From Erysipelotrichales bacterium (GTDB lineage: Bacteria > Bacillota_I > Bacilli_A > Erysipelotrichales > Erysipelotrichaceae), in the NCBI GenBank assembly GCA_910575705.1, contig CAJTFG010000002.1:124001-188000 (forward strand): a stretch of 64,000 nt of DNA. The letters are read 5' to 3'. The notes under the pieces were generated by a model that made no database searches, had not been told where the DNA came from, and worked only from the letters and a program-made list of their open reading frames with translations. This document shows positions 37,450 through 57,023 of this stretch, piece after piece. The translations under genes were made by a program, and so were the position numbers. Numbering within the stretch: position 1 is the first letter of the stretch; each line of letters starts with the position of its first letter.

Positions 37450-37929
37450 ATGGCAAAGCAGTTATTCGATACGATGAAAAACGGATATAACCGCTATCAG
37501 GTTGAAGATTATCTGAATGAGCTTGAGGAAAAAACAGCCATGTTGAACCGTAAGGTAGAGATGTACCGCAAGCGCAGTGAGGAAGTGGAGCATCAGCTCA
37601 TTTTGATCAAGCGCAAGTATCAGTATGTCGTAGATAATCTTGCTGCGAAGGAACAGGCGGCTGACGATATGGCGCGGATGGCTATGCGGCAGTCAAATCG
37701 GATCGTGGAAACGGCGCAGGCGAATGCGGATGTGATCGTGAAAGAAGCGCTGATGTCGGCTAGGTCGATCCTTCTGGAAGTAGCAAAGATGGGGACGGAA
37801 GCTACCGAGCTGAAAGGTAATATGTATGAACAGCTGAAGATTATATCAAAGGCATTGGATGATTTTGAGATCCCGCCGCTGCCGGATATGGATCTGCTGA
37901 AAAAAGATGAAGATCAATTGCTGCGATGA
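37450..37929 (+). CDS. divIVA: DivIVA-family cell division/polarity protein
   Basis: 159 residues. The N-terminal lipid-binding motif is FDTMKNGYNRYQVEDYLNEL, followed by a long coiled coil (about 25-140) and the tail IPPLPDMDLLKK. It marks curved membrane at septa and poles and can place division and sporulation proteins. Start 15 bases after ylmH; GTGAGGTGAG is the RBS. Confidence 0.92.
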   Translation: MAKQLFDTMKNGYNRYQVEDYLNELEEKTAMLNRKVEMYRKRSEEVEHQLILIKRKYQYVVDNLAAKEQAADDMARMAMRQSNRIVETAQANADVIVKEALMSARSILLEVAKMGTEATELKGNMYEQLKIISKALDDFEIPPLPDMDLLKKDEDQLLR

Positions 37930-37934
37930 AGACA

Positions 37935-38140
37935 CGCTTCTGATGATGAATGCAAAGAGAGCAGGCGGCTGGTGAAAGCCTGAGAGGATTCATGGGAAGA
38001 TATCACTTCTGAGCTGGCAGTCCGAAGGATGGTAGGATTGCCCGTCTGCTTACGTTACGAGTACAGAGTGCATATCAAGCGATATGAACTAAGGTGGTAC
38101 CACGTGATCAGCGTCCTTAGATCAGGGCGCTTTTTTTTTA
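37935..38140 (+). promoter_or_regulatory. T-box leader of ileS (Ile specifier)
   Basis: The T-box sequence AAGGTGGTACCACG is at 38091-38104. CTAAGG (38089-38094) can pair with CCTTAG (38115-38120) as antiterminator, competing with the terminator AGCGTCCT/AGGGCGCT (38110-38131) and its eight T's. ATC at 38002-38004, in an internal loop closed by GAAG/CTTC, is the likely specifier codon and fits the downstream enzyme. Uncharged tRNA-Ile should switch ileS on. Confidence 0.92.
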
Positions 38141-54921: not shown

Positions 54922-54944
54922 AGAAGAACGATATTGAAGGAAAT

Positions 54945-54991
54945 AAAAAAACAGATGGGAATCGCGATGTGCGAAATTCCTATCTGTTTTT
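54945..54991. terminator. Bidirectional terminator between coaD and the reverse transcriptase
   Basis: Long stem built from AAAAACAGAT and ATCTGTTTTT with GGAAT/ATTCC inside; it marks the boundary between the core gene and the accessory cassette. Confidence 0.8.
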
Positions 54992-55008
54992 AGAATGCGC
55001 TTACTGAT

Positions 55009-56247
55009 TTATGCGGTTTTACGAGGAGCGTCATTTCTTTTTGAATTATCGAGCGGAGGGCTCTTTGTTTGTTTTTGCGCTTGTTGTCTTGCCTTTTGCT
55101 TTCGTTTTCGCTCTTCGATTTTTTTGATCGTGTGCTGTTTGCCTTTTTCCAGATTTTCAATCGTAAAATTTTGAAAGATCTTTTTCTGCAGCTGATATGT
55201 ATGCCCTTGCTTTAAATGTCCTTGTATGCTAACGATCTGTTTGTTGATGGTTTCTAGGTCTGTACGTCCACAATAGTAATCGTATTTCATTTTATTGAAT
55301 TTACGCTGCAATCTTTTTTTGGCGCTTTTTCTTAGGCGGCGGATCACTTTTCCGCTTTCGGTGACATAGAAATGAAAGCCGATAAAATCGATTCCTTGAG
55401 AAAGGGCAGCCATTTCGGTTTTCTCATTAAAACGAAGATGCAGTTTGTGCTCGATAAAAGATTCCAAGCGAAAACGGATCTCCTTGAGCTTTTCTTTATC
55501 TTCATGGATCAATACCATATCATCCATATAGCGGATATAATATTTTATCCGCAGTTCTTCTTTGATGAAATGATCCAGGGGATTCAAATAGTAAAGAGCG
55601 AGCACTTGAGAGACCAGATTGCCTTGCGCCAGTCCGGTACCATTTTCATTTGCATAGCTGTCGATGTACATGTCAACCATAGAACGTATTTTTTCATCCG
55701 TAAATTCTTTGGCGATCAACTTCTTGATGATGTCATGATCGATGCTGGCAAAATAGCTTTTGATATCCGCTTTCAGGAAATATCCCTTATTGCCGTGCTC
55801 CTTATAAAATTTTACCAGGTGGGCCGTCAGTCGTTTTACCGCAAAATTATTTCCTTTCTCCTCCTGGCAGGCTACGTTGTCATAAATCAGTTTTTTTGAG
55901 ATTTGAGGGATTAGGACTTCATCGCAGATGGCATGCTGAATCATACGATCGCGATAAGATAATGTCTGAATCTCTCTCTCTCTTGGCTCATAGACCAAAA
56001 ATTTGCGATACCCATCAATCGCATATGTTCCGCTTCTTAGTTCATCTTGAACTTTCATGAGATTTAATCCGAGGTTCAATTCAAATTCCATGACCTCACG
56101 TTTGTTCTTTTTCCCCCGTTTTGCCTTTTGATGTGCTCGGTATAAAGCAGAAAATTCTGTCATGCGTTGAAAATCATCTTCGATGATCTCATCGATGATC
56201 GGCTTTTTTGTTTTTTCTGCTGTATTCCGATTGATGATATCTTCCAT
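55009..56247 (-). CDS. Reverse transcriptase (DGR-like or unknown-group RT)
   Basis: 412 residues. RT motifs: YEPREREIQTLSYRDRMIQHAI (finger/motif 0-1), LKADIKSYFASIDH (motif A with catalytic Asp), GLAQGNLVSQVLALYYLNPLDHF (motif B), YIRYMDDMVLIH (catalytic YMDD), IDFIGFHFY (motif D/E). After residue ~300 come a basic thumb-like region and a Lys/Gln/Arg-rich tail. There is no maturase X, endonuclease or primase domain, so it is not a group II intron RT. Motif B is QGNxxSQ: SQ is shared with DGR enzymes, but the leading Gln is the residue DGRs usually replace with Ile/Val/Leu. RBS AGAGG; twelve bases after the Avd-like gene, so one operon. Confidence 0.93.
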   Translation of the reverse strand: MEDIINRNTAEKTKKPIIDEIIEDDFQRMTEFSALYRAHQKAKRGKKNKREVMEFELNLGLNLMKVQDELRSGTYAIDGYRKFLVYEPREREIQTLSYRDRMIQHAICDEVLIPQISKKLIYDNVACQEEKGNNFAVKRLTAHLVKFYKEHGNKGYFLKADIKSYFASIDHDIIKKLIAKEFTDEKIRSMVDMYIDSYANENGTGLAQGNLVSQVLALYYLNPLDHFIKEELRIKYYIRYMDDMVLIHEDKEKLKEIRFRLESFIEHKLHLRFNEKTEMAALSQGIDFIGFHFYVTESGKVIRRLRKSAKKRLQRKFNKMKYDYYCGRTDLETINKQIVSIQGHLKQGHTYQLQKKIFQNFTIENLEKGKQHTIKKIEERKRKQKARQQAQKQTKSPPLDNSKRNDAPRKTA

Positions 56248-56259
56248 TGCGACCTCTTA

Positions 56260-56679
56260 TTATGATGGCAAATCCAAAGATTGCTGCGAATTCTTTTTCA
56301 TGATTTGCTTATGCTTGGCTTCATCACTGCGCATCCATCCAACGATCAGATTTAAACAATCATAGGTGTATTTGGATATATTGGCATAGTGTTTAGGAAG
56401 AATGCATTGCTGTTCTTTCGCAAACAGTGCCAGATAGGCGAGAAGCTTTAGCGTCGTTAATGCTTCGGACTGATAATTCCATCGTCTTCGATAAGTCTCC
56501 TTATCGATGATCTTTACTTCATTTGCTTTGTAAACCAATTCAATCAAAGTCAATGAGTAGTTCTGCATTCTGGATGTAAGAGTAAAACGAAACTTTTTTG
56601 GTGCGTTTTCTGATACCTGAAATATATAACTGCTTAAGTCTTTGATTTTTGTGGTAATTGTCAAATCGTTTAGTTTCAT
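56260..56679 (-). CDS. Avd-like four-helix-bundle protein
   Basis: 139 residues, predicted nearly all helical after a short N-terminal strand. SYIFQVSENAPKKFRFTLTSRMQNYSLTLIELVYKANEV, then LTTLKLLAYLALFAKEQQCILPKHYANISKY, and the end LNLIVGWMRSDEAKHKQ follow the layout of Avd (accessory variability determinant) and 23S-IVS four-helix proteins, including a closing GW. Avd forms a basic pentamer that binds RT and nucleic acid in DGRs. The start at 56679 has AGAGGA upstream. The assignment is by pattern and by the adjoining RT. Confidence 0.7.
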   Translation of the reverse strand: MKLNDLTITTKIKDLSSYIFQVSENAPKKFRFTLTSRMQNYSLTLIELVYKANEVKIIDKETYRRRWNYQSEALTTLKLLAYLALFAKEQQCILPKHYANISKYTYDCLNLIVGWMRSDEAKHKQIMKKNSQQSLDLPS

Positions 56680-56713
56680 ACAAAAATCCTCTTTTCTGGT
56701 ATTTTCTTTTGGT

Positions 56714-56745
56714 AAAATAAAAATGCAAGACAAATGTCTGTGCAT
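56714..56745 (-). terminator. Intrinsic terminator between the predicted RNA and the Avd-like gene
   Basis: On the minus strand, ATGCA-C-AGACA pairs with TGTCT-TGCAT (one bulge), followed by TTTTATTTT. Read-through would be needed to express Avd and RT from the upstream promoter. Confidence 0.7.
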
Positions 56746-56807
56746 CTTGCTCATACCGATGTGTGAATCTTCCTTTTCTTCCTCACCTAAAGATAGGGGA
56801 TTCACAC
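56714..56807 (-). ncRNA. Predicted ~95-nt structured RNA upstream of the Avd-RT genes
   Basis: On the minus strand a -10 TATAAT (56819-56814) places the start near 56807, at the first base of a ten-base inverted repeat (arms 56799-56808 and 56760-56769, TGTGTGAATC and its complement). The 29-base loop holds a small CCTA/TAGG hairpin and a purine-rich stretch (GAGGAAGAAAAGGAAG). The unit ends in an intrinsic terminator 30-odd bases before the Avd start codon. No convincing short ORF with an RBS fills it. Confidence 0.55.
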
Positions 56808-56813
56808 AATGTA

Positions 56814-56865
56814 ATTATAATTCATGTGTTTTAAAAAGTATATAGTTTTTTACATATTATGTTAA
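56814..56865 (-). promoter_or_regulatory. Promoters of the RT cassette
   Basis: Two overlapping candidates on the minus strand: TTAACA, 17 bases, TATACT (56865-56837), and a perfect TATAAT (56819-56814) with a weak -35. The surrounding 56810-56930 is very AT-rich, unlike the core genes around it. Confidence 0.55.
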
Positions 56866-56992
56866 AAAATTAACAATTTTAATATAATTTATGAAAAATT
56901 TGTAAAAAAATATAAAATGATATTGTCGGATCGCTTTGGGACATGCGCCGTACATATCGGGGAAAAGTATGGGATTTCTTTAGCGGTTGTGC

Positions 56993-56998
56993 TATAAT
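56993..56998 (+). promoter_or_regulatory. -10 element for the 57.0-kb membrane protein gene
   Basis: TATAAT with an extended TGC, 25 bases before the start codon. No clear -35. Confidence 0.5.
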
Positions 56999-57023
56999 AC
57001 AAAACAGATAGAGAGGAACGAAT

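What the first reader, a model, noticed from the sequence alone, without database searches (positions are those of the whole stretch)
56714..56808. Structured RNA candidate starting at a 10-bp inverted repeat and ending in a terminator
Seen: -10 TATAAT puts the transcript start at the base of the TGTGTGAATC stem; the loop is a 4-bp hairpin plus a purine run rich in A; a terminator follows, then the Avd RBS. A terminator between promoter and operon means the short RNA should be the main product. The purine-rich loop could be an RT template or a protein-binding site.
Basis: partly seen in the sequence, partly recalled or inferred. Interest (0 to 1): 0.7.

Follow-up and report, generated by a model that had tools for sequence, protein, structure and literature searches.

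The report
DGR-derived cassette with hairpin RNA
A bacterium carries a small inserted cassette of a hairpin RNA plus two proteins taken from a gene-mutating retroelement, but the template and target that normally make that element work are missing and the enzyme's mutation-linked motif has changed, so it may have been put to a new use.

Summary
The observation mostly holds. On the minus strand, 56808-56703 folds far better than shuffles (z -5.0, 0 of 200). It is a 10-bp stem (56808-56799/56769-56760) followed by a bulged terminator-like hairpin, then a Shine-Dalgarno, avd and an RT.

The RT and Avd are diversity-generating retroelement (DGR) proteins. The RT falls inside a clade of canonical DGR RTs, but the cassette has no template/variable repeat. 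None was found in the window or the 1.85-Mb genome, while 104 of 117 relatives with enough flank have one. The DGR signature (I/V/L)GxxxSQ reads QGNLVSQ here; Q occurs in 0 of 155 relatives. RNA, avd and RT together make a ~2.0-kb insertion between coaD and its usual neighbour.

Best reading: a DGR-derived, probably non-mutagenic Avd-RT cassette with its own short structured RNA, more likely an RNP partner than a mere attenuator. No homologue of this RNA was found, so covariation cannot be tested and the RNA's role remains inference. New variant of a known kind, n=1.

The parts
54922..57023 (.). interval between coaD stop and the start of the 57024 gene, holding the whole inserted cassette
   Evidence: in 7 family loci coaD is followed by the same gene after about 40-230 nt; here 2102 nt
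56837..56865 (-). best-scoring promoter-like site (TTAACA-17-TATACT), would start the RNA near 56830
   Evidence: 10 of 12 matches; consensus match only
56814..56819 (-).
   Evidence: sequence; -35 matches 3 of 6
56760..56808 (-). hairpin 1: 10-bp stem with an inner imperfect hairpin that pairs the purine run; apical loop AGGUGAG
   Evidence: (-17.7 kcal/mol, z -3.5, 1 of 200 shuffles)
56709..56750 (-). terminator-like hairpin 2 with U-rich tail
   Evidence: -11.3 kcal/mol, z -4.2, 0 of 200 shuffles; not listed by the simple scan
56260..56679 (-). avd, 139 aa, bAvd-like
   Evidence: Pfam PF22296 E 5.7e-12 over cut-off; NCBIfam DivGenRetAVD under cut-off; only Avd in the genome
55009..56247 (-). 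DGR-lineage reverse transcriptase, 412 aa, intact
   Evidence: RVT_1; best solved relative 8ub7_A, the BPP-1 bRT by recall; tree; only RVT_1 hit in the genome
55624..55626 (-). codon of Gln208, where DGR RTs have I/V/L
55519..55530 (-). YMDD catalytic motif, intact
54947..54991 (.). inverted repeat between the RT and coaD stops, probable shared terminator
   Evidence: 10-bp stem, loop 25

Best explanation
This is a compact inserted cassette, RNA - avd - RT, derived from a DGR that has lost its template repeat, spacer RNA and variable-repeat target (shown for this assembly). Transcription starts at or just upstream of the hairpin and mostly stops at the terminator-like hairpin, giving an RNA of about 100-120 nt; read-through supplies avd-RT mRNA (inferred). 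Avd and RT bind this RNA as an RNP, which serves as scaffold, primer or template for cDNA synthesis that is no longer adenine-mutagenic (inferred from the kept YMDD and Avd, the changed IGxxxSQ motif, and the RNA-operon layout shared with other ncRNA-RT systems). The part 'DGR-derived and without TR/VR' I hold at about 0.9; the part 'the RNA is the RNP partner' at about 0.4.
For: The RT is nested in a 21-row DGR clade (SH-aLRT 95, quick tree), with nearest RTs about 38-45% identical. Of the 20 others in that clade, 19 have a detected TR/VR; L012 is on a 3.7-kb contig. No TR/VR here: (2.1-kb locus against the genome, next best E 0.04), (at least 6 non-A mismatches per 60 nt, against 0-1 in 10 of 10 positive controls). 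No second RT or Avd. Gln at the first residue of the DGR motif in 0 of 155 relatives. RT otherwise conserved (departs at 2 of 29 conserved columns). RNA unusually well folded and inside the insertion.
Against: n=1: no relative with this RNA was found, so there is no covariation or conservation. No detectable similarity to DGR spacer RNA (model R1, 6.3 bits, E 0.68; Smith-Waterman: 204 of 300 shuffles reach the observed score); R1 misses many true DGR RNAs too, so this is weak. The purine run is paired. The hairpin could be only a leader, and the element could be a decaying DGR. No expression data.
Confidence: 0.4

Rival explanations
1. Leader attenuator: the hairpins only limit or regulate avd-RT expression (terminator/antiterminator, or Avd binding its own leader); the RNA is not a substrate of the RT.
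For: A terminator-like hairpin sits between the promoter and avd, with a good SD after it. The leader lies directly upstream of the operon.
Against: No antiterminator alternative is evident: the best fold is also the centroid. No Rfam leader family matches. It leaves the RT without any known RNA substrate.
Confidence: 0.25
2. Decaying DGR: TR, spacer and VR were deleted, avd-RT is a not yet degraded remnant, and the hairpin is incidental.
For: DGRs without a detected TR/VR exist among relatives (13 of 117 with enough flank), and a broken one is seen in L190 (RT match with 2 TGA and 3 TAG inside). No target is found here.
Against: Both ORFs are intact with good ribosome sites, YMDD and nearly all conserved columns are kept, and the RNA is among the best folded stretches of the window. 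TR-less relatives with a matched motif keep I/L at the motif (e.g. L210, L247, L265).
Confidence: 0.22
3. DNA-level element: the inverted repeat is an operator or an end of the mobile cassette rather than RNA.
For: The 10-bp inverted repeat overlaps the presumed start point. A 9-bp direct repeat AAAACAGAT flanks the insert (54948, 57001).
Against: The 9-mer occurs 7 times in the window. The loop of 29 nt with an inner paired hairpin and a following terminator fits RNA better. The same stem was found once in IMG/VR, in an unrelated intergenic-looking stretch.
Confidence: 0.08

Closest known systems
Diversity-generating retroelement (BPP-1 type avd-TR-RT; nearest examples L009-L025, L002, phage nd12 OR777946)
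   Same: RT lineage, bAvd protein, YMDD, and a noncoding RNA as part of the cassette. In one DGR clade (L041, L043, L050) the TR also lies upstream of avd.
   Different: No TR/VR, avd and RT 12 nt apart instead of flanking a TR, RNA upstream of avd and unlike spacer RNA, motif QGxxxSQ instead of (I/V/L)GxxxSQ.
DRT10 (UG17 RT + SLATT + ncRNA; PMC12632851, abstract and sections 6, 8 and 9 read)
   Same: Order ncRNA - small gene - RT; ncRNA of 137 nt there, about 100 nt here; a possible A-B-A' pattern (AGGAAGA-AA-AGGAAGA, 9-nt period).
   Different: RT is of DGR lineage, and its UG17 score is no higher than that of canonical DGR RTs (93.9 bits against 88.9-99.9). Avd instead of SLATT. The A-B-A' run is paired, and 6.9% of shuffles have a repeat as long.
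Retrons
   Same: Short structured RNA with an inverted repeat next to an RT.
   Different: Repeat encloses 29 nt only; RT lacks the NAxxH and VTG motifs (motif names recalled).

Membership tests
DGR | RT falls in the DGR clade | tested here: met
   (104 rows, quick tree, SH-aLRT 95 for the 21-row set); best PDB match 8ub7 E 3.6e-43, next 1e-14
DGR | (I/V/L)GxxxSQ motif in RT domain 4 (PMC3521204, passages read) | tested here: not met
   QGNLVSQ; Q in 0 of 155 relatives (I 74, V 50, L 23, P 7, T 1); SQ half kept
DGR | TR/VR pair with mismatches at TR adenines | tested here: not met
   positive controls (10 of 10; 104 of 117)
DGR | accessory protein Avd | tested here: met
   over Pfam cut-off; below NCBIfam cut-off
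DGR | structured spacer RNA between TR and RT | tested here: inconclusive
   avd-RT gap is 12 nt; no match of R1 beyond chance, but R1 gave only 8 matches in 43 other relatives
DRT10 | UG17 RT with SLATT partner | tested here: not met
   DGR lineage; UG17 score same as canonical DGR RTs; partner is Avd
[quoted passage not shown]
   7-nt repeat at 9-nt period, 6.9% of shuffles as long, paired in best fold
Retron | RT motifs NAxxH and VTG (recalled) | tested here: not met
Rfam families | match above gathering score | tested here: not met

The most novel reading that the evidence does not exclude
A DGR reverse transcriptase and its Avd have been exapted into a non-mutagenic, ncRNA-templated DNA-making system, convergent with DRT/retron defence: the 5' RNA replaces TR plus spacer, the IGxxxSQ motif reverted towards the QGxxxSP form of other RTs, and the RNA (possibly its AGGAAGA-AA-AGGAAGA stretch, in a telomerase- or DRT10-like repeat-addition mode) is copied into short cDNA.
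Probability: 0.15. Interest if true: 0.85.

Novelty: new variant of a known kind. Interest (0 to 1): 0.5.

Why it matters
DGR RTs are known as mutagenic retrohoming enzymes. An intact Avd-RT that has lost template and target, changed the residue tied in the literature to adenine mutagenesis, and sits with a new structured RNA would be a natural test of what that motif does and of whether DGRs feed into other RT functions such as defence. It would also show that searches requiring a TR/VR pair miss such elements.

Tried and rejected
TR in the cassette: rejected by blastn of the 2.1-kb locus against the genome, local TR/VR search, A-tolerant 60-nt scan against the 64-kb window (controls) and an A-free pattern of the hairpin against the genome. 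A short or very diverged VR outside the 64 kb, for a TR elsewhere in the cassette, could still be missed.

DGR RNA supplied in trans: model R1 over the genome gave only chance-level hits (best E 0.78); R1 is narrow.

Hairpin as remnant of TR end or spacer: I noticed AGATTCAC in the TR end of L009-L025 and in the hairpin, but local alignment is no better than shuffles (204 of 300). Dropped.

Closeness to UG17/DRT10: rejected as ancestry, kept as analogy.

Same stem elsewhere: one IMG/VR hit, unrelated context. Other Q-type DGR RTs: pattern QGxxxSQ-25aa-YMDD in IMG/VR gave one hit in a locus where no RT ORF was found; exact spacing was required.

Relatives in phages, plasmids, family, order, class and phylum samples: none with this layout seen in the loci opened (of the 148 phage and 962 plasmid records with a match only 3 phage loci were opened). 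Avd-only loci L285 and L286 have no RT in about 1.5 kb.

avd starting upstream at GTG 56805 (open frame through the RNA): not favoured, no SD there, good SD at 56679.

Full report
What is there. The feature is on the minus strand. Reading 5'->3': an 87% AT promoter region (56930-56809), a TATAAT at 56819-56814, the stem TGTGTGAATC (56808-56799), 29 nt, the stem GATTCACACA (56769-56760), a linker TCGGTATGAG, a bulged hairpin with a U-rich tail (56748-56709), a Shine-Dalgarno, avd (56679-56260), 12 nt, the RT (56247-55009), then an inverted repeat (54991-54947) shared with the converging coaD. The 106-nt RNA folds at -35.4 kcal/mol, z -5.0, 0 of 200 shuffles. In a scan of 3196 windows of the same length on both strands only 2 had a lower z (24 shuffles each, the RNA itself scoring -3.9 in that scan). 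The 10-bp stem by itself is not exceptional (18 in 64 kb). The promoter is uncertain by about 22 nt, and the simple terminator scan does not list the bulged hairpin.

It is part of an insertion. In 7 of 11 loci from other genomes of the same family that hold a homologue of the 57024 gene, coaD is its direct neighbour, with an intergenic space of about 40-230 nt. In the other 4 coaD was not found in the fetched stretch. (One search found the homologue in 22 of 57 genomes examined, the window's own included; only these 11 others became loci.) None of the 11 has avd; one (L184) has a distant RT-like gene (23% over 200 aa) in the stretch. In the window the space is 2102 nt and contains RNA, avd and RT. 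So the RNA arrived with, or has stayed with, the two genes.

The proteins are of DGR lineage. P0002 matches Pfam bAvd above its cut-off (E 5.7e-12), and NCBIfam's DGR Avd below its cut-off. P0001's best solved relative is 8ub7_A (E 3.6e-43; next 1e-14), the BPP-1 DGR RT by recall. Its closest sequences are RTs of DGR type in Firmicute/Tenericute MAGs, phages and IMG/VR contigs at about 38-45% identity. In a quick tree of 104 RTs (of 155 prepared) it lies in a 21-row set (SH-aLRT 95), 19 of whose other 20 members have a detected TR/VR pair; the exception L012 is a 3.7-kb contig. Only 8 of 272 family genomes have any match at E 1e-20, the window's own included, and the best other is 41% identical.

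It is not a working canonical DGR as assembled. In relatives, TR/VR pairs with A-specific mismatches were found in 200 of 258 loci, and in 104 of 117 with at least 2.5 kb on each side of the RT (a few loci are the same contig fetched twice). Here nothing: blastn of the 2.1-kb locus against the 1.85-Mb genome gave only itself and short hits (next best E 0.04). No local pair was found. An A-tolerant scan of all 60-nt windows of the cassette against the 64 kb had at least 6 non-A mismatches, where 10 of 10 positive controls had 0-1. The hairpin with all A free matches only itself, allowing 3 mismatches. There is one RVT_1 and one bAvd in the genome.

The motif. DiGReF (PMC3521204, passages read) describes (I/V/L)GxxxSQ as the almost invariant mark of DGR RTs that may explain adenine restriction, against QGxxxSP in most retroviral, non-LTR and group II RTs. 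The window reads QGNLVSQ. At that column 155 relatives have I 74, V 50, L 23, P 7, T 1 and Q 0. In the second batch of 92 loci the only Q is the window's own copy L198; the motif was not matched in 2 loci. The 8ub7 RT has I there. The biochemical role of that residue (bRT I181, Handa et al. 2021) is recalled; that paper was not held. Other landmarks, YMDD included, are kept (2 departures in 29 conserved columns).

What the RNA is not. No Rfam match. It does not resemble the spacer RNA of DGR relatives: I aligned 27 chosen spacers (of 163 extracted), which share an outer stem, GAGUA-hairpin-GAAA.CAG and CAAAGGAA, and built model R1. The window RNA scores 6.3 bits, E 0.68, lower than a stretch inside the RT gene (7.4 bits). 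R1 gave 8 matches at E up to 1 in 43 other relatives (one, in L274, is on the minus strand), so it cannot exclude a diverged spacer. Direct alignment with TR plus spacer of 20 near relatives is at shuffle level (204 of 300 shuffles as good). It is not a retron RNA by motif or size.

How it most likely works. Shown: intact Avd and RT, no TR/VR, a well folded leader RNA inside the insertion. Inferred: a short RNA is the main transcript, avd-RT come from read-through, and the RNP is Avd-RT plus this RNA, used as scaffold, primer or template. The nearest published layout is DRT10 (ncRNA - SLATT - RT; PMC12632851, abstract and sections 6, 8, 9 read), but the RT is not UG17: its UG17 score of 93.9 bits is within the range of three DGR RTs with TR/VR, 88.9-99.9. 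An A-B-A' pattern of 9-nt period (AGGAAGA-AA-AGGAAGA) exists in the purine run, but 6.9% of shuffles have a repeat as long, and it is paired, so it is a lead only. Rivals are a pure attenuator and a decaying DGR; without sister strains or expression data they cannot be separated.

Literature. Searches (open-licence PMC only) showed no paper in their listings whose title or abstract describes an Avd-RT cassette without TR/VR and with a 5' RNA. Roux et al. 2021 (PMC8144416, passages) required an imperfect repeat near the RT, so such elements would be left out there. Sharifi and Ye (PMC8934634, passages) found Avd_like next to 62% of DGR RTs.

Noticed in passing
L199, L204, L211 and 24 other loci (alignment A2): DGR spacers of phage-type relatives share a conserved core: outer stem, AGUA, small hairpin, GAAAgCAG, then CAAAGGAA. 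A covariance model could serve as a DGR RNA finder.
   Followed up: partly
L190 / L287: An RT with internal stops in its match and avd downstream of the RT: looks like a decaying or rearranged DGR.
   Followed up: no
L043:2924-4960 (also L041, L050): DGR layout with TR upstream of a 137-aa unknown gene, then overlapping avd and RT.
   Followed up: partly
L285 and L286: avd beside a large, possibly variable target-type gene but no RT within about 1.5 kb.
   Followed up: no
L184: A distant RT-like gene (23% over 200 aa) close to the homologue of the 57024 gene in another genome.
   Followed up: no
window 54948 and 57001: 9-bp direct repeat AAAACAGAT flanks the insert; it occurs 7 times in the window, so it may be chance.
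   Followed up: yes
window 37914-38121: T-box leader, plus strand.
   Followed up: no
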